Assembly (NCBI GenBank): GCA_030527235.1
Contig: JAUNBL010000001.1
Span: 74,294 to 138,293 of the forward strand
Direction of reading: 5' to 3'
DNA: 64,000 bases
From: Clostridia bacterium
Lineage (GTDB): Bacteria > Bacillota > Clostridia > UMGS1883
Shown here: in pieces, positions 3,983 through 35,334 of the stretch
Numbering within the stretch: position 1 is the stretch's first letter
Layout: the number at the start of each line of letters is the position of its first letter
Notes under the pieces: generated by a model
Database searches by the model: none
The model's input: only the letters and a program-made list of their open reading frames with translations
Told to the model about the DNA's origin: nothing
Position numbers and translations under genes: made by a program

Positions 3983-4040
3983 GAGGTATCCCTTACTATC
4001 ATTAAAATTTGAAGCATTGTTATCAGTCCTTTCCGAAAAT

Positions 4041-4090
4041 AAATAAAAGGGGCAGCCCCTGCATAAGTTTCCTTATACAAAAGCTGCCCC
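4041..4090 (-). terminator. Intrinsic terminator after the InlB-repeat gene
   Basis: GGGGCAGC and GCTGCCCC form an 8 bp stem around a 26 nt loop on the minus strand, followed by TTTTATTT. It lies 17 bases after the stop codon of the gene at 4107 and separates it from virD4. Confidence 0.85.
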
Positions 4091-4106
4091 CAAATGTGTG
4101 ATAGGC

Positions 4107-4883
4107 TTACTTACAGAATTTTTCGTTGTAAATTTCCATAAGTTCATTTAATCTTTTATTCTGTTCTACCCATTGTGCCGTGACGGGTACCCCCGTCTTT
4201 TCGTCAATGTAATTGCCAAAGGCGAGGATTTCATCATTACTTGCATAAACTCTCTGCACCGCCGGAGCGTTATACATCACCGTTCCGTTTGGAATCCATT
4301 TTGCGTAAACGGTATCGCTTTCATTGAAAGTAAACTCCGCTACCCGATTTTCCTTTGTTTGCGGGTCTGAATACCAACCGTCAAAGTCATAGCCGTATCT
4401 TGTCGGAATAAACTCCGTAAGCGATATTGTTGTTCCAAGCGGTTTTACAACAGACTCAATGTATGAGCCGTCCTCTGCGGCAAAGGTGAGAGTGCGTGTT
4501 CCTGTCAAGCTCCAATGTGCATAGAGCGTTGTATCGGAATAATACTCGGTGTCGGACGATACCTTTTCGCCGTTTTCGGTAAACCAACCCTCAAACTGAT
4601 AGTCGCTGTTACGATACGGCAGTGGAAGTTTGATTTTATTCTGCTCCGTAACGGCTTCTGTGATGTCGGTTTTGTAAATTCCGCCGTATAATGAGCCGCC
4701 GTTACAATTAAGCGTTATAACTCTTTCGCCTTTTAAGGAATATAGTGTTTTTTCCTTTCCGCACTCACATACATAAACCTTTGAATCCTGTTTTGTATAT
4801 TCGTGCGTGTGTGCCGCCTGTGCGGCAAATGAGGTTGATAAAATGAGCATTGCCGCAAAGCTCGCAAATACTGTTCGTTTCAT
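4107..4883 (-). CDS. Secreted protein with two InlB-type B repeats
   Basis: A 258-residue protein with a signal peptide (MKRTVFASFAAMLILSTSFAAQA). A short Cys/His segment (HTHEY, then VCECGKEK) resembles the repeats of the large surface protein encoded next in the element. Two copies of the Listeria/Bacteroides InlB B repeat follow, recognisable by FEGWFTENG...LYAHW and FDGWYSDPQ...VYAKW. There is no LPxTG motif, SLH domain or membrane anchor, so it is probably secreted or held by other surface parts. The start follows GGAGGAATTTCAA. Function is unknown; a role in cell-cell contact during transfer is a guess from context. Confidence 0.8.
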   Translation of the reverse strand: MKRTVFASFAAMLILSTSFAAQAAHTHEYTKQDSKVYVCECGKEKTLYSLKGERVITLNCNGGSLYGGIYKTDITEAVTEQNKIKLPLPYRNSDYQFEGWFTENGEKVSSDTEYYSDTTLYAHWSLTGTRTLTFAAEDGSYIESVVKPLGTTISLTEFIPTRYGYDFDGWYSDPQTKENRVAEFTFNESDTVYAKWIPNGTVMYNAPAVQRVYASNDEILAFGNYIDEKTGVPVTAQWVEQNKRLNELMEIYNEKFCK

Positions 4884-4969
4884 TTGAAATTCCTCCGTTT
4901 CAATAGTTTATTTTCGGTATCTTTATTGTATCACCATATAAAAAGACCGTCAAAAAATTTTCTGAAACG

Positions 4970-4995
4970 AAAAAAGACGAACATTGTGGTTCGCC
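4970..4995 (-). terminator. Intrinsic terminator after the small zinc-ribbon gene
   Basis: On the minus strand GGCGAAC, a 6 nt loop and GTTCGTC (one G-T pair) are followed by TTTTTT. It abuts the stop codon of the gene at 4996. Confidence 0.75.
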
Positions 4996-5196
4996 TTATT
5001 TATATCGTATGACAGGCACATTTTTCATCTTGCCGCCTATTTTCTGCCGTTGCAGAGCAAACACCATATCGGGAGTTCTTTCAAAAAATCCAATATCTTT
5101 TTCCCAACTCATACCGCATTTACAATGTTGTAATCCGATAAATTGCTGTTTCATTTTATGTCCGCAATTCGGGCATATTTTATTACTTGCACCCAT
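4996..5196 (-). CDS. Small zinc-ribbon protein of unknown function
   Basis: A 66-residue protein with CPNCGH near residues 8-13 and HCKCG near 29-33, a likely four-ligand zinc ribbon. A GGAGC ribosome binding site lies 8 bases before ATG 5196, and a terminator follows the stop. It lies between the large surface protein and the InlB-repeat protein. The family is not recognised; the codon use and signals make it a real gene. Confidence 0.65.
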   Translation of the reverse strand: MGASNKICPNCGHKMKQQFIGLQHCKCGMSWEKDIGFFERTPDMVFALQRQKIGGKMKNVPVIRYK

Positions 5197-5244
5197 TTTT
5201 ATGCTCCGTTCCTAATATATGTTTTATCATATCACAAGAATGCA

Positions 5245-5274
5245 GAGAAAGCAACCATTTGCGGCTGCTTTCTC
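5245..5274 (-). terminator. Hairpin after the surface-protein gene
   Basis: GAGAAAGCA and TGCTTTCTC form a perfect 9 bp stem 15 bases after the surface-protein stop codon. No T run follows, so it may be an mRNA 3' end hairpin rather than an efficient terminator. Confidence 0.5.
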
Positions 5275-5289
5275 CCATTTGCACAAAGG

Positions 5290-7586
5290 TTATTTCACCC
5301 AAGTTTCGGAATTATCGTGTGTGTTTGCAAGGTGTGTGTTGCTTGCCTCTGCTATCGCATAAAACGCCCAATGCAAATTGTTTTTAAGGTCGGTAAACTT
5401 ATTGAGCAACGAAAGATTTTTATTGATATATCCCTCGTCAGCAATTCTGCCGGTTGCTTTGTTTACAACAGTTACAACTTCTGCTCTTGTAATAGCGTTA
5501 TCGCCTTTGAATGAGCCGTCAGCGTAGCCGTTAAGCCAGCCTGCGTGTTTTGCATAGGCAATATCGGAATATGCCCAATAATTTGTTGCAACATCGGTAT
5601 ATTTTACTGTGTATCCGTCCTTTTTAACATCGCTGAACAATGCATCAAAGCGCACCGTCATTGCTACAAATTCCGCACGGGATATGTTTTCGTCCGGCTT
5701 AAAGGTGTTGTTGTCATAGCCCTTGATAATGCCGTATTTTTCGATATATCCGATAAACTTTGAATACCATTCACTTGACTTGACATCTGCAAAGTCGGAT
5801 TTGCCGCTTATCTTTTCGCCTTTCTTTTCGGAAATAAGCCTTGCAAAGATAGCAGCAGCTTCAGCACGGCTCATATTATTGTCCGGTCTGAAAGTGCCGT
5901 CACCATACCCGAAAATATATGCCTTATGCTCTGATGCCGGAAGTATCAGCGTACCGTTTTTATCCGTTGTGCCGTTTGCTGAATTGTTCTTTTTATCCTT
6001 TAAGGTAATGGTAACATCAGCTTTGGAGTTACCTTTGCTGTCGGTTGCCTTAATGGTGTAGTAGTTATCATTTGTCAAATCTGCACCATTCGGAAGTGTC
6101 AATGTAATATTTCCATCTTTATCGGTTGATTTTGAAACAGATACAGTTTTGCCGTTTTTGTCAGTTACTGTAATATTTGTGATATTGGAACTGATGTAGC
6201 TGCCACCGCTGCTGCCGCCACGACCACCACCACCCGAAGATGAACCACCGCCGGACGATTTCACCGGAAGTGTAACCTTACCGTTTGCATCGGTTGTGCC
6301 TGTCTTTTCGGTTGCCTTGTCCTTAATGGTAACCGACACACCTTTAACAGCTTTATTTTCTTTGTCGGTAACTGTTACGGTTGTCTGATTTGAGGTAGTC
6401 AAAGTCTTATCATCGGGAAGTGTAACGGTAATTTTGCCGTCTTTAATCTCGATAAAGGCATTTTCGATTTTGCCCTTTGTGTCTTCAACCGTGATGTTGT
6501 ATTCGGTTTTGGTTTCCTCGGTATCGGTCTTGCCATCACCGTCCGTATCTTTGCCGGGGATAGTTTCGGAAATATCCGTTTTTCCGTCCTTATCCGTTAC
6601 ACCCTCATTTGACGGTGGAAGAATAATAACTCCGTCTTTATCGGTAACACCTGTCAAAGACTTTGTTTCCGTACCCTCAAAAGCTTTTTCGGAAACAATA
6701 ACACTCATATCCTTTACAGCCGTATTATCTGCCTTATTTGATACGGTTACGATAATTCTGTTCGCATAATCAAACTTTACACCTTCGGGTAATTCAACAG
6801 AAATGTTTTCTGCCGATTTAACGCTGTCGTCCTCATTTTTGATTTCCGCATTATGTTTGATATGTGCCTTTTCAATAGCTCCGACAGCATTTTTCACTGT
6901 TACAATATATCCGTCAACTTCGCCGTAGCCGTTGAAATCGGTAACATCAATGTTTGTCGGCGGCACGGTTGCTTTTCCGTTTTCGTCCGTAACATTGCTT
7001 TCCGTTCTGTCGGATTTGTCTGTGAAAATAACGGTCATATCCTTAACAGGCTTATCCTCACTATCGGTAATTGTTGCGGTAATGCGGTTGCTTATGTCGA
7101 TTAGGCTGCCTTCGGGAAGCATAACATTTATCTGTCCCTCACCGATAGTAACAAAAGCATTTTCGATAGGCTTTGTTTCGTCTGTAATTAAAACATTGTA
7201 GCCGTTGACTTTTGCTTTTCCCTCGCTGTCGGTAATATCCTCCGAAAGCGGCGGAACAACCATTTTTCCGTTTTCATCAGTTTTGTCTGTCAAGCTCTTT
7301 TCAGCCTTATCCGAAACGGTAACGGAAATGTCTTTCAAAGGATTTCCGTCTTTGTCGGTTACGGTTACTGTAATACGGTTTGAGTAGTCAATACTTGTTC
7401 CGTCCGGCAATGCTACAGAAATTGTGCTGTCATCATTCAGCTTTACAAAAGCGTTTTCGATAGCTCCGCTCTCGTCATTGACAAACACATACATTCCGTC
7501 AATGCGTACTTTACCCGTATCGTCCGTAAAACCATCTTTGGCGGTCGGCAATGTGATTTTTCCGAACATATCGGTTACGCCTTTTT
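5290..7586 (-). CDS. Surface protein, 3' exon: Ig-like repeats and three SLH domains
   Basis: The downstream exon of the gene split by the group II intron, contributing 765 codons and the stop. It holds four to five repeats of about 115 residues with the pattern IENAF-x-LPDG-NRITVTV-D-GK-x-LPP, likely Ig-like or carboxypeptidase-regulatory-like folds. A Gly/Ser-rich hinge (GGGSSSGGGG) follows, then three S-layer homology domains marked by GYGDGTFRPDNNMSRAEAA, GYDNNTFKPDENISRAE and GYADGSFKGDNAITRAE. SLH domains bind secondary cell wall polymer and would hold the protein on the surface. Without splicing the only start would be the internal ATG at 7569, which lacks a signal peptide. It is probably an adhesin or aggregation factor carried by the element; that role is inferred. 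Confidence 0.85.
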
Positions 7587-7635
7587 GTTGCGATAGGTAA
7601 GCTATTGATATTATCTCTTGCTTTTCCCCCGCCTA

Positions 7636-7669
7636 ACACTGTACGTGCGACTTTCACCGCATACAGCGT
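7636..7669 (-). ncRNA. Group II intron domain V
   Basis: A 34 nt hairpin on the minus strand with lower stem ACGCTGT/ACAGTGT, upper stem TGCG/CGCA closing around gtGAAAgt, and the two-base CG bulge before TACAGTGT. This is the catalytic core of group II ribozymes. The triad at the base of the stem reads CGC rather than the commoner AGC. Confidence 0.85.
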
Positions 7670-7730
7670 CCCATCATTTTACTTTAACTAATTGTCCTAT
7701 GTATTTGCGTTTTAATCATATTTATTCGTG

Positions 7731-9584
7731 TCATTTGATTTCTTCTAATCCTGCTAACACTCGCAGCTTGTTGAGTTTTTTCATTCCATTTTCGGATATT
7801 TTCAGACCTTTTACATATTTTGAGATGACATCTGGACTTTTTGCGTGAATTAAAATGTGAATATCTTTTGTAACAAATATAAGATTTTTATATGTATCAT
7901 CTCCGCCAAGCTCTCTCGGCATTTTATGATGACATTCCATATTTCCTATTGTTAGTTTCTGACCTGTTATTGCACATTTTCCGCACTGTCCCGTGTATAG
8001 TGAAATTCTATTATCATTGTATTCTATTGACATATTTCTTGCTGGATTTTCAAGCATATATCTCATAATATCAATGTCAATATCAAAAGATTTATATATT
8101 TCATTTCTACCTTCAGGAGTGTATGAGCTAATGCTTGCCTTAATTCCTCTGGGCGTTCTGTATTTGCAGTATCCAATAGGAATGATTGGCTTGTCCATTA
8201 ACCACCTTACTTGTTTTGATTTGCCATATCTATGTAAAAGAAATTTACTGTCAAATTTACCCTCTTTACTTGTATTGAGCCTATTTTGCATTGTATTTCT
8301 GACTTCAAATTGTATCTCTCTAAAATCTTCAAAAATATGCGTTGCTATACAGTAATAATTTTGAATACCTATTACTGTTGAGTTGTATTTACAAATTCTT
8401 GTGAATAACTGCATATCATTTTCGGGCTTTTGAATTGCTTTGATTTGTTCTTTTAGCTTTTCTTTTGCCCTTAGACGAGCCTTATCACACATCTTTGTTT
8501 TTGCCACGTTCTTATTCGATTTTTCCCTAAGTTTCAATTTGAAGCCAAGAAATTCACTGTATTTTCTTTTGAGATTCGTTATACCTGTTTTATTTTCTGA
8601 CACTTCTAATTTCAATCTGTGATTTAACCATTGGGTTGTTGCGAATTTAATTTTGTTCGCATCACTTCTTGTTTTACAGAATATCTTGAAGTCGTCAGCA
8701 TATCTAACAATATACATTTCTTTAAGGTTTGTAGTTCTTAAATCTCTGTATTCGTGCGCCAAATCTCTAACTCCTGATTTTCTTATTTGCATTTGCGGTG
8801 GTTTTTTCATTACTTTCCACTGCAAGTGCCATTGTGAAGCAATCCACCAATCCAATTCGTTTAATACAACATTTGCCAATAAAGGTGATAATATACCACC
8901 TTGCGGTGTTCCTTTTTGTGGGTATTCAACCGTTCCGTCAGGTAATAAAACTGGTGCTTTTAGCATTTGTTTTATTACTTGTATCAACTTTGTGTCGGTA
9001 ATGCCTAAAGTCCATAGTTGCCTTAATAGTTTTCTGTGATTGACATTATCAAAGAAGCCTTTTATATCAACATCTACCACATATTGCATATGCGACCGTT
9101 GCATTAGTCTAACACTTTCGGCTATTGCATTTTCAGCACTTCGGTTAGGTCTAAATCCATAAGATTTTTCATAGAACTTTGCCTCACAAATTGGTTCAAG
9201 GATTTGCAAAATACATTGTTGTATTATCCTATCTTCAATACAAGGTATTCCAAGAGGTCTTTTCTTTCCGTTTGGTTTTGGAATTTCAACTCTTTTTACC
9301 ATTTTGGGATGGTAGTTTTGCAACTTTCGCTGTATGTATGCCAAGAACATTTCTTCACTCATATTTTTAAAATATTCAATGTTTTTCTTGTCCGTTCCGG
9401 CAGTGTGACTACCCTTGTTTGCTTTTATAGACCTATATGCAAGTTTTATGTTGTTAGGTGATGTTATTAACTCCATTAAGTTATTGAAGTTATTTCCCTT
9501 TGAACTTTTTGCATACAATTCATCTTGCAAAATCTGCATATCATAATAATTTGCGATTGTTGCCTTATGATTTTTCACATTCAC
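7731..9584 (-). CDS. ltrA: Group II intron reverse transcriptase/maturase with HNH endonuclease
   Basis: A 617-residue intron-encoded protein. The reverse transcriptase domain spans about residues 60-380, with GIPCIEDRIIQ, YGFRPNRS, DIKGFFDNV, GTPQGGILSPLLAN and the catalytic YADD in VRYADDFKIF. A maturase (X) region follows. The C-terminus carries an HNH-type nuclease: CGKCAITGQKL, then ECHHKMPRELGG and NLIFVTKDIHILIHA. Together these allow intron RNA splicing and retrohoming. The start is GTG 9584 behind AAGGAG; an ATG upstream is followed at once by a stop. No frameshift or stop interrupts it. Confidence 0.95.
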   Translation of the reverse strand: MNVKNHKATIANYYDMQILQDELYAKSSKGNNFNNLMELITSPNNIKLAYRSIKANKGSHTAGTDKKNIEYFKNMSEEMFLAYIQRKLQNYHPKMVKRVEIPKPNGKKRPLGIPCIEDRIIQQCILQILEPICEAKFYEKSYGFRPNRSAENAIAESVRLMQRSHMQYVVDVDIKGFFDNVNHRKLLRQLWTLGITDTKLIQVIKQMLKAPVLLPDGTVEYPQKGTPQGGILSPLLANVVLNELDWWIASQWHLQWKVMKKPPQMQIRKSGVRDLAHEYRDLRTTNLKEMYIVRYADDFKIFCKTRSDANKIKFATTQWLNHRLKLEVSENKTGITNLKRKYSEFLGFKLKLREKSNKNVAKTKMCDKARLRAKEKLKEQIKAIQKPENDMQLFTRICKYNSTVIGIQNYYCIATHIFEDFREIQFEVRNTMQNRLNTSKEGKFDSKFLLHRYGKSKQVRWLMDKPIIPIGYCKYRTPRGIKASISSYTPEGRNEIYKSFDIDIDIMRYMLENPARNMSIEYNDNRISLYTGQCGKCAITGQKLTIGNMECHHKMPRELGGDDTYKNLIFVTKDIHILIHAKSPDVISKYVKGLKISENGMKKLNKLRVLAGLEEIK

Positions 9585-10334
9585 ATATACATCATCTCCT
9601 TACGGAGTATGACAATTTCTATTGTCCTACTCGACTTTGTGAATTAGTACATAGAATTTAGTCTTTGTAAAATGACTTGTGGCTATCCCTCCACTATGTT
9701 ATCCATAGTTTCAACGGTACTGTGCCACTACCTTCAATTAGATAAAATTGAGTTCCCTCGACTTCCTTTGTTCAATTAGAGTCGTTTCCTCAATAACACT
9801 CCCTTGTAATAGGTTTGTTGATGAGTGTTCTAACCTTACCACGTTCCAATAATTCTATCATTAGTCATACTTAGGTGCTTCCTATGAGCCTGATTGCTTG
9901 ATTGTGCCTCTAACACAATAAGGATTTTCATAACATCGAGTTTTACTCACCCTCACAATCACTGCATTTAGCAGTATGCACATTTCTATACATTCGACTT
10001 ATAGACCCGTACATTCAGAAGTTCGTCAGATATTCCTATCATTCTCACCATATATGACCGACACCCGACCTATCATACCCTCGACCACCTCTGGTTCGCA
10101 TTTCCTCAGCATTTTCTGTTAGGGGGTACTCTCAGCCTTACTTCACCGAGCTTCGCACCTTAGTTGTATTACACCAACTAACGCACGTCGGAGTATCAGT
10201 GCAGGCGTTTCAAGGCGTTACTCTCTCATTCCACCTGTCAAATTATTAGTTCTCCTAATTTTCCTCATATTAAATTGTATATATAACTGAGGTTCGATTA
10301 GTGCGTAAGCTTTTCACTTACGAACGTGTCGCAC

Positions 10335-13300
10335 CGATGTAGTCCGCATCTCCGAGCGTTATAACCGTAACGCCCTGCTGCGGCTGTCCGTGCTGGTCGG
10401 TAACAGTTATAATAACGGGATATTCACTTGTCGGCTTAATGCCGTCCGGCAAATCAACAACAATATTGTTGCTCTCGCCGATGTAAACCTCGCAATTCGG
10501 AATAACGACATTCATTTTGTCGGTAGCCTTTACGACAAATGTGTTTTTCTTATCCTCGTCATCTTTGCCGACCGTGCCGCTGTTATCACCGGTAGAGGTT
10601 TTGTTGTTCGGAACTTTAAGCTGACCGTTTTCATCTGTTTTACCTGTTGCTGCGTTATTGTTTACATCATAGATAAAAATCTGCAACTCCGATTTCGGCT
10701 GCTGTGAATCCGTGTTAATTGCAGTTATAATGGTTTGGTCTGCATAATCAAGCAGTCTGCCGCTTGGCAATTTGATAGTTACATTATCATTGATGTCAAT
10801 GCTGATTTCACTATCAAAAATCGGTTTCCCGTTTGCGTTGGTTACAAGAATAGAAAAATCTCCGACTTTGGAATTACCGTCCTCGTCCGTGCGATCTTTC
10901 TCTACAAGCTGCGGAATTGATGCTCTTGAAAGCACCTCACCGCAAGTCAAGCACTCAATATGTTTTTCTCCGGCGTGTTCGATAGTAGCAGGCTCGTCAA
11001 TTATCCAATCGGACGGATTATGTCCCGTCATATCCTTGTAATCTGCCGTATATGTTTTACCGCAGTTTTCGCAAGTGTAGACGGTATATCCGGAAGCCGT
11101 ACAAGTCGGCTCGGTTACATCAGCAATATAACTGTGATTGATTTTATCGGTGTAATCGCTGATATATTTATAATCACAGTTTTTACACTCATACACCGTA
11201 TATCCGAGAGCCGTGCAAGTCGGAGCAGTAACGGTCTTTTTATAATCGTGCGCCGCCTTATCTACATAATCAGCCTTATAGCTATCTCCGCAGCTTTCAC
11301 AGGTGTAAATTGTATATCCCATTTCTGTGCAAGTGGGTGGAACTACGGTTTTATTGTAGGTGTGCTTTTCACAGTCGGTTAAATCGCCGATATACTCCTT
11401 GCCGCAGTCGGGGCAAGTATAAACGGTATAACCGTGTTCGGTGCAAGTTGGCGGAATAACCTTTTTGTCATAATTATGTTCTGTCTTATCAGTATAATCC
11501 GCAACATAGGTATCACCGCAGTCGGCACAAGTGTAGGTTGTAAATCCAAATTCCGTACAAGTCGGGTTTGTAATTTCTGCTTTGTAATTATGAGAGAGCT
11601 TGTCTGTATAATCTGAAATAAATTCATCATCACAGTTTTTACAAGTGTATGTTGTGTATCCCATAGCCGTACAGCTCGGAGCAGATACGGTCTTTTTGTA
11701 ATCGTGTTCTGCCTTATCGGTGTAATCGCCAACATAGCTGTCATCACAGTTATCGCATTTGTATTCTGTATAGCCCATAGCTGTGCAAGTCGGAGCAACT
11801 ATCTTTTCGGAATAGCTGTGTCCTTTCGGAAGTGCTAATACCGTACCACACTTTTCACAGGTTTGCGGCTCTGTGCAAGTAGCAGCCTCGCCGGGTGTGT
11901 GTCCCGTTGCAGATTCCGCTTTAATCATCTTTTCTTTACAGCCTGCATTGGTGCAGTGATACTCAATTACACCGTCTGACGTACAGGTAGATGAAGTTAC
12001 AGAATGACCTCCATCCCAATTATGACCTGTCGGCTCTGTGTAATCCGATACAAATGTCTGTCCGCACATAGTACAAGTTGAGGTCGTATAGCCTTTATCG
12101 GTACAGGTCGGCTCTTTGGTGATACGCTCATAGGCGTGTGAAATAATCGGTGTCATATCGGTTATATATGAGTTGCCGCAGATTTCACAAGTATGATTTG
12201 TATAACCTGTCATTCTGCAAGTAGGCTGTACTTTTTCTGTCTTGTATTTATGCTCGCCGACGGGAGTGGTTTCCTCATAAAAGCTGCCGCACTTGTCGCA
12301 AAGGTTTAATTTCAAACCACCCTGTTTACAAGTAGCTTCTCTTATGGTGATTGCCTTGTAATTATGCCCGGTTGCCTTTGTGTAATTTCTCTTATCGAGA
12401 TTTCCGCAGCCATCGCACTGCCAGCGTTCATAACCGAGGTTATCGCAAGAGGGAGCAACGGTTTCAAGGTAGCGGTAATCGTGTTCGTGCTTTTCGGGAA
12501 GTACGATTATTGTACTGTCATCGTCTTTCTTATCCTCCAAAAGCCACACATACGATACACCGTTTTCAACCATTGTTTCACCGTCGTATTTATAACTGAT
12601 TTCATAGTACACGGGGTAATATCCGGCTTTGGTGTAATTCGGTGCGGAGGTCATATAACAGTCGGAGGCGGTTTTGCCGTAACGGATTTTTGTATGCACA
12701 CCGCTGTCGGATAAATCGGATACGCTTACCGTATGTGCGTCACCGTCCGCCGTTCCGTAATAAGAAGATACAACCGACTTTGCCGCAACATATTCGCTTG
12801 TGGTATAGCCGCAGTCATCGCACTTTTCCGTGAGATAAAAGCGGTTGTTGCCGATCTGTCCGTCAATCGTGCTTGTAAGGTCGTGCGACTCTTTCTTGAT
12901 ATTAGCCTTTGCATAAGTTCCTTTGCAGAATTGGCAGTATTCGCCCTTCTTTAATACGGTTGTGTGCTGATGTTCGTCATACAACTCGTAAGTCGTATTA
13001 TCAAAGTCGATAAAAAAGTTGTGGTCGCAGGAGTTCAAGCCATAAACATTGTTGTTGAAGTTATATGCTCCCGAACCGTCAACGGAGTTAATTGTGCCGC
13101 AAGTCTGACACACAGACTTTGTGTAATGATACCCCGTATAGCTTGCATCCACGCCGGGAGTGCCGCTGTCCGTGTTACCTTTTTTCTTGCCCTCAAGGTC
13201 ATAACCGTCTGACCACTTAACACCGTGATTCATAGCCGTCTGTCCCGATTTGGTGTATTCGGGTACACGGTAGGTTAAAACAGTTGTGTGCTTATTGCAT

Positions 13301-13506
13301 ACCGGACACCACTGTGTTTCATAGGTTACGGTTGCGTTCATATCAAGTTCATTGGTTCTGTTATTTGTTTTCAGCCAATTATCCGCAGGATCTACATATG
13401 TGTTGCTTTGTGCCGCAAAGACCGACACGGGGAGTGTGCCTGCAACAAGAATAACTGCAAGCAGCATTGAAATAACCGATTTCATAGAAAAATGTTTGGT
13501 TTTCAT
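10335..13506 (-). CDS. Surface protein, 5' exon: signal peptide and Cys/His repeats
   Basis: The upstream exon supplies 1,057 codons plus one base. It begins with a signal peptide ending near VSVFAAQ (about residue 32). From about residue 340 there are some 13 tandem repeats of about 38 residues: H-x-Y, then PTCT-x-GYT-x-YTC-x-x-CG, then DYTD. Each repeat has three Cys and one His and could bind metal or be held by disulfides. An Ig-like region follows, in which the intron lies. Without splicing, translation runs five residues into the intron and stops at 10318, giving a protein with no SLH anchor. The gene lies between pcfB and a small zinc-ribbon gene. Exact function is unknown. Confidence 0.85.
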
Positions 13507-33278: not shown

Positions 33279-33308
33279 TGTTGTGCCTCCTTTCCGTGTG
33301 TGATTGCA

Positions 33309-33346
33309 TAAAAAAGAACGCCTTATGGTTTGTTATAAAGCGTTCT
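33309..33346 (-). promoter_or_regulatory. Terminator hairpin in the repA leader (possible attenuator)
   Basis: AGAACGC with TTAT/ATAA inside pairs to GCGTTCT, then TTTTTT on the minus strand. It ends 31 bases before the repA start codon, downstream of a TATAAT-like box at about 33527-33532. Transcripts from upstream would stop here unless read-through occurs, as in attenuation-controlled initiator genes. An orphan AAAAGGAGG without a start codon lies just upstream. The other sequence in 33347-33540 shows no gene. Confidence 0.6.
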
Positions 33347-33485
33347 CAGTTGATATTTTATTAAATTTTGACCTCCTTTTGCAGGGTATAACTTTTGTCT
33401 TTAACTTAACATTACCGTTATTAAAGACGAAAATCTTGTAAATTTCGGGTTGGAAAAAGAACTGAAATATATCAAGATAAATCGC

Positions 33486-33512
33486 AAAATCCCTGATTTT
33501 ATGCGGCTTTCA
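33486..33512. repeat. Direct repeat copy A flanking the integrase remnant
   Basis: Shares 23 of 27 positions (one gap) with 33763-33788. The common core is ATTTTATGCGG, followed by a variable base and TTTCA. It lies on the ICE side of the truncated integrase. Confidence 0.7.
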
Positions 33513-33539
33513 CCGTTTGTCTTTATTATACCATAGGGG

Positions 33540-33698
33540 CATTCGCACGCTTCGTTGTTAATCGAACTTGGCTTTCAGCCTTTGTTAGTATCAGAGAGAT
33601 TGGGACACGAGAACATTGAAACGACGCTTCAAACGTACTCACATTTGTACCCAAACAAACAGCGTGAAGTAGCTGATAAACTAAGAAGTATCGTATAA
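33540..33698 (+). pseudogene. Tyrosine recombinase, C-terminal remnant
   Basis: 52 codons in one open frame ending in TAA: HSHASLLIELGFQPLLVSER, then LGHENIETTLQTYSHLYPNK. The first His starts the HxxR-type region (here the partner of LRHSHAS), LGH is the second conserved block and the Tyr of TYSHL is the nucleophile. Everything upstream is missing: the sequence changes abruptly to non-coding DNA before 33540. It is on the opposite strand to the ICE genes and points to guaA. It is probably left from an island that used the guaA 3' end. Confidence 0.88.
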
Positions 33699-33762
33699 AT
33701 CCGACCGATACAATTTTAATTTATAGTACGCTTTTAGTACGCTTAACGATTTTAAGTCCCCG

Positions 33763-33788
33763 AAAAGCCCCATTTTATGCGGGTTTCA
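33763..33788. repeat. Direct repeat copy B beside guaA (possible att remnant)
   Basis: Imperfect copy of 33486-33512, 13 bases before the guaA stop. It lies within a hairpin made of CCCC...GGGG arms (about 33759-33794) that may also end guaA transcription. A short direct repeat TAGTACGCTT (two copies at about 33724-33744) lies just before it. These are the features expected around a recombinase attachment site. Confidence 0.6.
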
Positions 33789-33801
33789 GGGGATTTAGTC
33801 G

Positions 33802-35334
33802 TTATTCCCACTCGATAGTAGCCGGAGGTTTGGAGGTGATGTCGTAGACGATACGGTTTATATGAGGGACTTCGTTGACAATGCGATTGGATACTCTCTC
33901 TAAAACGTCGTAAGGAATGCGCGCCCAGTCCGCCGTCATAAAGTCGGTTGTGGTCACGGCGCGGAGAGCAATTGTGTAATCGTAGGTGCGTTCGTCCCCC
34001 ATCACGCCAACGCTTCGCATGTCGGTAATCACGGCAAAGTACTGATTTATGTTTCTGTCAAGTTTGGCGACTGATAATTCCTCGCGGAAAATCGCGTCTG
34101 CTTCACGCAAGATATCAAGTTTGTCTTTCGTAATGCAGCCTATTACTCTTACGGCGAGCCCGGGTCCGGGGAACGGTTGACGCCACACAAGATTGTCCGG
34201 AATACCAAGCGCAGTACCGAGTGCGCGAACCTCGTCCTTAAAAAGCATACGCAAAGGCTCCACAATTTCCTTAAATTTAATGACGTCGGGAAGCGCACCC
34301 ACATTATGATGACTTTTGATTTTTGCGCTTTTTCCGCTGCCGGATTCAACAACATCGGGATAAATAGTGCCTTGGACAAGATAGTCAACCTCGCCGATTT
34401 TATTGGCTTCGTCCTCAAAAACGCGAATAAACTCCTCGCCGATAATGCGGCGCTTTTGTTCAGGTTCACGCACGTTGGCAAGTTTTGAGAGGAAGCGTTC
34501 CTCGCAGTTGACTCGAATAAGGTTTATGTCAAACTGTTTGGTGAATACTTCTTCGACTTCATCGCCTTCGTTTTTACGTAAAAGACCGTGGTCAACAAAT
34601 ATACACGTGAGATTCTTCCCGACGGCGCGAGACAAAAGCACTGCAGCAACTGAGCTGTCCACCCCGCCTGAGAGCGCGCACAGCACTTTCTTACCGGCGT
34701 ATTTTTCTTTCGCCTGCGCAATATAGTTTGCAGCGTAGTCTGCCATCTGCCAGTCGCCTTTGCAGCCGCATATGCCGTAGAGGAAATTACGCAGCATGTC
34801 AAATCCGCGAGGCGTGTGGTTTACTTCGGGGTGAAACTGCACAGCGTAAAGCTTTTGGGCGGGATTTTCAAATGCGGCTACGGGACAAGTATCAGTCTCG
34901 GCCGTAACGCTGAAGCCTGAGGGGACGCTGTCAACATAATATGTATGGCTCATCCAGCATTGAGTTTCGCTTTCCATGTTTTCAAAAAGACGGCTCTGCC
35001 CGAGGCGAAGCGTCATTTTGCCGTACTCTCTGCTGTCTGCGCGCTTAACGCTGCCGCCGAGCATATGGCTCATGAGCTGAGCCCCATAGCAAATGCCGAG
35101 CACGGGAACGCCAAGCTCAAAGATGGCCTTATCACACATCGGAGCGTCTGAATCGCATACTGTGGCGGGACCACCGGTGAAGATTATTCCCTTGGGTCTG
35201 CAGGCGCGAATTTCGTCAATTGTACGTGTATAAGCAAGCACCTCGCAGTAAACGTTCGCTTCGCGTACGCGGCGTGCAATCAGCTGATTGTATTGGCCGC
35301 CAAAGTCTATTACCAAAATAGTTTCCTTGTCCAT
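33802..35334 (-). CDS. guaA: GMP synthase (glutamine-hydrolysing)
   Basis: A 510-residue enzyme that converts XMP to GMP with glutamine and ATP. The class I glutaminase domain comes first, with GICYGAQLM (catalytic Cys about 83) and the His-Glu pair in QFHPEVNHT. The ATP pyrophosphatase domain has the P-loop LSGGVDSSV (about 223). The dimerisation domain ends [17 protein letters not shown]. The length is normal. The 3' end is intact although it adjoins the island scar, as happens when insertion at guaA regenerates the coding end. Confidence 0.97.

What the first reader, a model, noticed from the sequence alone, without database searches (positions are those of the whole stretch)
5290..13506. 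Group II intron whose splicing restores a 1,822-residue surface protein exactly in frame
Joining 10335 to 7586 obeys both intron end rules (GUGYG and AY), gives 5,469 coding bases (divisible by 3) and rebuilds one domain repeat: DADYI-E-KGVTDMFGKITLP. Unspliced RNA gives a secreted protein without SLH anchor and stops five residues into the intron. Splicing could therefore switch between released and wall-bound forms.
Basis: partly seen in the sequence, partly recalled or inferred. Interest (0 to 1): 0.76.

Follow-up and report, generated by a model that had tools for sequence, protein, structure and literature searches.

The report
Mobile intron inside ICE surface-protein gene
A self-splicing mobile intron sits inside a surface-protein gene carried by a conjugative element; removing it rebuilds the exact protein that related, intron-free elements encode, which is a clean example of known biology, and nothing here shows that splicing works as a switch.

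Summary
On the minus strand, 7587-10334 is an intact 2,748-nt group II intron with its own reverse transcriptase/maturase. It interrupts a gene made of exon 1 (10335-13506) and exon 2 (5290-7586). Joining them gives 5,469 nt, a stop-free 1,822-aa protein. Three tests independent of the reading frame support the splice sites. (1) Uninterrupted homologues in three related genomes read gap-free through the junction (GDADFIEKGKTDIYGKITLP against spliced GDADYIEKGVTDMFGKITLP), one in a syntenic conjugative element. (2) EBS1 (CGATGT) pairs 6/6 with IBS1 (ACATCG); the same alignment column pairs perfectly with each intron's own exon in 18 of 27 related introns (at most 4 in 500 shuffles). (3) The Rfam D5-D6 model ends at 7587, and relatives share the 3' end TTACCTATYNNNAY. 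The 'released versus wall-bound switch' is unsupported. There is one D5-D6, so no C. tetani-type alternative 3' sites. Homologues are intron-free. Relatives of the intron sit in conserved motifs of VirD4, topoisomerase and UmuC genes, where a switch makes no sense. A truncated secreted product from unspliced RNA follows for any intron in a secreted-protein gene. Verdict: new member of a known kind, like Tn5397 orf14 or Ll.LtrB.

The parts
10335..13506 (-). Exon 1 of the surface-protein gene (3,172 nt): N-terminal signal-like sequence, Cys/His-rich repeats, first Ig-like repeats; ends after base 1 of a codon (phase 1)
   Evidence: 63-65% identical to uninterrupted homologues; signal sequence judged by eye
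10335..10340 (-). IBS1, ACATCG, last six bases of exon 1
   Evidence: pairs 6/6 with EBS1
7587..10334 (-). Group II intron, 2,748 nt, GTGCG...AC
   Evidence: Rfam hits; family ends GTGYG and TTACCTATYNNNAY; uninterrupted homologues
10054..10254 (-). Intron 5' ribozyme domain match (Rfam group-II-D1D4-5)
   Evidence: 162.8 bits, E=1.3e-36, model 1-201/201
9933..9938 (-). EBS1, CGATGT
   Evidence: aligned column pairs 6/6 with own IBS1 in 18 of 27 introns, at least 5/6 in 24; shuffled maximum 4
9996..9999 (-). Probable EBS2, AGTC, facing GACT at 10341-10344
   Evidence: aligned column has at least 4/5 pairs with the stretch just 5' of IBS1 in 20 of 27 introns; 4 bp in this intron read by eye
7731..9584 (-). 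Intron-encoded protein, 617 aa, GTG start with AAGGAG upstream: reverse transcriptase with YADD, maturase region, C-terminal HNH-like endonuclease
   Evidence: NCBIfam group_II_RT_mat 353.7 bits above cutoff 300; Pfam RVT_1 E=4.5e-38; HNH 0.0047 and GIIM 0.021, both below cutoff
7587..7671 (-). Intron domains 5 and 6, 3' splice site after 7587
   Evidence: RF00029 58.1 bits, model 1-77/77; stable fold z=-3.8
5290..7586 (-). Exon 2 of the surface-protein gene (2,297 nt): Ig-like repeats, Gly/Ser-rich linker, three SLH stretches, stop
   Evidence: 54-62% identical to uninterrupted homologues

Best explanation
[quoted passage not shown] Transcription of the gene yields a precursor in which the intron, helped by its own maturase, splices itself out with 10335 joined to 7586. 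EBS1-IBS1 pairing chooses the 5' site and D5-D6 the 3' site. The ligated mRNA encodes the same 1,822-aa SLH-anchored protein that intron-free relatives of the element encode. Splicing neutralises the insertion; it is not shown to regulate anything. Shown by sequence: anatomy, pairing, restored frame, identity of the restored junction with uninterrupted homologues. Inferred: that the RNA is spliced in the cell, and the intron's mobility.
For: Rfam D1-D4 and D5-D6 complete. Joined frame 1,822 aa. Uninterrupted homologues G020:C14 (1,970-aa frame), G026:C38 (1,919), G027:C5 (1,874) and G027:C8 (1,231), gap-free at the junction, the first three with IEKG. G026 keeps the same gene order on both sides (MobC, MobA, DUF3801, surface protein, Flg_new, T4CP), T4CP 82% identical, with no intron. 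EBS1-IBS1 covariation 18/27 perfect against at most 4 in shuffles. Intact maturase. Related introns restore host frames at conserved motifs: topoisomerase TDSDREGEN^IA, DHH GDYDC^DG, VirD4 DEFGN^MP and DPKG^E, UmuC KSFY^AS. Published precedent of in vivo splicing from an ICE gene: Tn5397 orf14 (PMC4430133).
Against: No RNA data. Only one genome (a draft assembly, 82% complete by the listing) holds the intron at this site. Small changes in the 2.7-kb RNA could abolish splicing without being visible here.
Confidence: 0.9

Rival explanations
1. Regulated switch: the cell controls splicing so that unspliced RNA gives a released 1,062-aa protein and spliced RNA a wall-bound 1,822-aa protein.
For: Unspliced frame ends after five intron codons and lacks SLH. 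C. tetani C.te.I1 makes surface-protein isoforms by alternative splicing (PMC3919590).
Against: No regulatory feature found. Single D5-D6 and no alternative 3' site. Intron-free homologues make only the full protein. Relatives of the intron interrupt enzymes at catalytic motifs. Even in C. tetani splicing ratios hardly changed with conditions (abstract of PMC3919590).
Confidence: 0.05
2. Brake on the host gene: the intron splices, but the freed intron re-targets the ligated mRNA through EBS-IBS and lowers expression, as reported for Ll.LtrB on a relaxase mRNA.
For: Perfect EBS1-IBS1 match remains in the ligated mRNA. Mechanism shown for Ll.LtrB (PMC6003770). It is compatible with, not exclusive of, the best explanation.
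Against: Nothing specific to this locus; the pairing is needed for splicing anyway.
Confidence: 0.3
3. Dead insertion: the intron no longer splices and the surface-protein gene is knocked out.
For: Many bacterial group II introns are truncated or inactive (PMC4424553). No expression data.
Against: Ends, EBS1, D5-D6, and maturase all intact, and both exons open over 5.5 kb.
Confidence: 0.07

Closest known systems
Group II intron in orf14 of the conjugative transposon Tn5397 (C. difficile)
   Same: IEP-encoding group II intron inside a coding gene of a clostridial ICE; splices perfectly from its host gene in vivo with its IEP (PMC4430133)
   Different: Different host gene (orf14, no SLH surface protein); splicing there was shown experimentally, here only predicted
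Ll.LtrB of Lactococcus pRS01
   Same: Mobile group II intron interrupting a gene of a conjugative element, splicing restores the frame (PMC6003770)
   Different: Relaxase gene; group IIA; its effect on host mRNA was measured
C.te.I1 of Clostridium tetani
   Same: [quoted passage not shown] starts GUGCG (PMC3919590)
   Different: C.te.I1 has no IEP, four D5/6 motifs with four alternative 3' sites, and a 5' site shifted 8 nt upstream; here one D5-D6, canonical 5' site, complete IEP
ltrA-type introns on Enterococcus, Lactiplantibacillus and Priestia plasmids (for example NZ_KP342511, NZ_CP138643, NZ_CP032530)
   Same: IEPs about 45-50% identical over nearly full length, same intron ends and EBS1 column, inserted in conjugation and DNA-metabolism genes with frame restored
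   Different: Other target genes; different EBS1/IBS1 sequences

Membership tests
Mobile group II intron (ribozyme plus IEP) | 5' GUGYG and 3' AY ends | tested here: met
   GTGCG...AAC; relatives share both ends
Mobile group II intron (ribozyme plus IEP) | Conserved ribozyme domains D1-D4 and D5-D6 | tested here: met
   RF02004 162.8 bits, RF00029 58.1 bits, both full-length
Mobile group II intron (ribozyme plus IEP) | EBS1-IBS1 pairing | tested here: met
   6/6 here; 18/27 perfect in the same column across relatives, shuffles at most 4
Mobile group II intron (ribozyme plus IEP) | Reverse transcriptase/maturase encoded in domain 4 | tested here: met
   TIGR04416 353.7 bits, cutoff 300; RVT_1
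Mobile group II intron (ribozyme plus IEP) | HNH endonuclease domain in IEP | tested here: inconclusive
   HNH E=0.0047, 17.5 bits against cutoff 21.4; CxxC...HHK...N pattern visible by eye
Mobile group II intron (ribozyme plus IEP) | RNA splicing and retrohoming activity | not testable with these tools
   needs RNA or mobility assay
Alternatively splicing surface-protein intron (C.te.I1 type) | Several downstream D5/6 motifs each followed by an ORF | tested here: not met
   single D5-D6 in 4000-10400 at E up to 5 and in the whole window at gathering score; no second TTACCTAT-type 3' end in exon 2 plus 3 kb
Alternatively splicing surface-protein intron (C.te.I1 type) | No IEP; 5' site shifted 8 nt upstream | tested here: not met
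   617-aa IEP present; canonical site restores the frame

The most novel reading that the evidence does not exclude
A group II intron whose partial splicing sets the ratio of released to wall-anchored forms of an ICE surface protein, and so tunes cell contact during conjugation.
Probability: 0.05. Interest if true: 0.65.

Novelty: new member of a known kind. Interest (0 to 1): 0.25.

Why it matters
It is a well-supported case of a bacterial gene that annotation pipelines would call as two broken genes plus an intron ORF, while the intron-free allele in a syntenic element shows the intact product. If splicing were regulated, it would add an IEP-carrying, single-3'-site example to the one known surface-protein intron (C. 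tetani). As it stands it illustrates a general rule visible in this intron family: insertion at conserved protein motifs of mobile-element genes, with exact frame restoration.

Tried and rejected
Alternative 3' splice sites as in C. tetani: looked for extra D5-D6 and 3'-end motifs downstream, none. Viral contigs for IEP relatives: none. A striking codon-phase bias of this intron family (22 phase 1, 3 phase 0, 1 phase 2 among 26 distinct sites, homologous sites collapsed by hand) first looked like selection on splicing or translation, but a target preference for G-13 A-12 plus a purine at -1 already predicts 62-64% phase 1 in coding DNA, leaving P about 0.01-0.02, so it is mostly target choice. 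The second own-genome intron (C86) and the G009 intron fragment are cut by contig ends and could not be tested for a complete joined frame. dN/dS of exon 2 after insertion was not computed: only one intron-bearing allele is known.

Full report
Observation. The minus strand holds, in order, exon 1 (13506 down to 10335), a 2,748-nt intron (10334 down to 7587) and exon 2 (7586 down to 5290). Joining the exons gives 5,469 nt and 1,822 aa without an internal stop. The unspliced frame adds GATRS and stops. Exon 2 has three SLH stretches and Ig-like repeats; exon 1 has no confident Pfam family.

Intron identity. Rfam finds the 5' domains (RF02004, 162.8 bits) and D5-D6 (RF00029, 58.1 bits, all 77 model positions) on this strand; the D5-D6 match ends at 7587, exactly the proposed 3' end, without reference to any reading frame. 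The D5-D6 segment folds better than all 200 shuffles (z=-3.8). The internal ORF is a group II reverse transcriptase/maturase above the curated NCBIfam cutoff, with a weak HNH match.

Empty sites. A 180-aa query spanning the predicted junction found uninterrupted genes in three genomes of the same order: G020:C14, G026:C38, G027:C5, and a more distant paralogue in G027:C8. All align without a gap across the junction; the three closest read IEKG there. DNA at the site: G026 GACTTTATT|GAAAAAGGC, G027 GATTATATC|GAAAAGGGC, window GACTACATC[G intron A]AAAAGGC in codon terms. G026 carries a syntenic element: MobC, MobA, DUF3801, the surface gene, the Flg_new protein, T4CP and Maff2-like genes in the same order, T4CP 82% identical. 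G027's site (ATATCG) could still pair 6/6 with EBS1 counting one G-U, so it could be a homing target (inference).

Splice-site pairing. Boundaries were located in related introns from plasmids and genomes. In 11 introns aligned first, one column pairs with each intron's own last six exon bases at 5/6 or 6/6 in all 11. In 27 introns at distinct sites the same column is perfect in 18 and at least 5/6 in 24; when exon ends are shuffled among introns no column exceeds 4 in 500 trials. In the window this is CGATGT (9938-9933) with ACATCG (10340-10335). A second column pairs with the bases just upstream (EBS2-IBS2) in most relatives; in the window only 4 bp.

Relatives. Of 33 introns with both ends located, joining the flanks gives an open frame through the junction in 32 by a loose criterion (at least 70 aa). 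Several land inside textbook motifs: type IA topoisomerase, DHH phosphoesterase, VirD4 Walker B and DPKG, UmuC, SNF2-like helicase, CCA-adding enzyme (motif names are my reading of the sequences). Exact removal is therefore the rule for this family, and the window is one more case.

Mechanism and rivals. The best explanation is splicing that neutralises a retroelement insertion. Precedents are Tn5397 orf14 (PMC4430133) and Ll.LtrB (PMC6003770). The surface-protein switch has one relevant precedent, C.te.I1 (PMC3919590), but its defining features (multiple D5/6, no IEP, shifted 5' site) were tested and not met here. That failure does not by itself exclude an intron-retention switch; what is missing is any evidence for one, and retention products are expected from any intron. 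A mild brake on expression by intron re-targeting of the ligated mRNA is plausible and compatible.

Verdict. Observation correct and well placed; splicing interpretation well supported by comparative evidence; switch unsupported. New member of a known kind, interest about 0.25.

Noticed in passing
G000:C86 (locus L021), own genome: A second, related group II intron (IEP 52% identical) whose 3' exon encodes a DNA cytosine methyltransferase-like protein (reads QSFSIAGKRLGF at the splice); its 5' end is cut by the contig start.
   Followed up: partly
G009:C131 (locus L022, near base 55 of the contig): The first 34 bases of a 97% identical intron lie at a contig end inside another surface-like gene (CHAP-like region, Cys/His and Glu-rich repeats) in the same bacterial family; the rest is not assembled.
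   Followed up: partly
L033-L077 (related introns): Codon-phase bias: 22 of 26 distinct insertion sites are phase 1. A target preference for GA at -13/-12 and a purine at -1 explains most of it (62-64% expected, P about 0.01-0.02 for the rest).
   Followed up: partly
L025:4247-6979 (roe deer rumen MAG): A 72% identical intron in a different gene has the same six exon bases (ACATCG) before the splice site.
   Followed up: partly
window 33300-35334: The conjugative element's rep gene lies next to the 3' end of guaA (GMP synthase), which suggests integration at the guaA 3' end; att sites were not sought.
   Followed up: no
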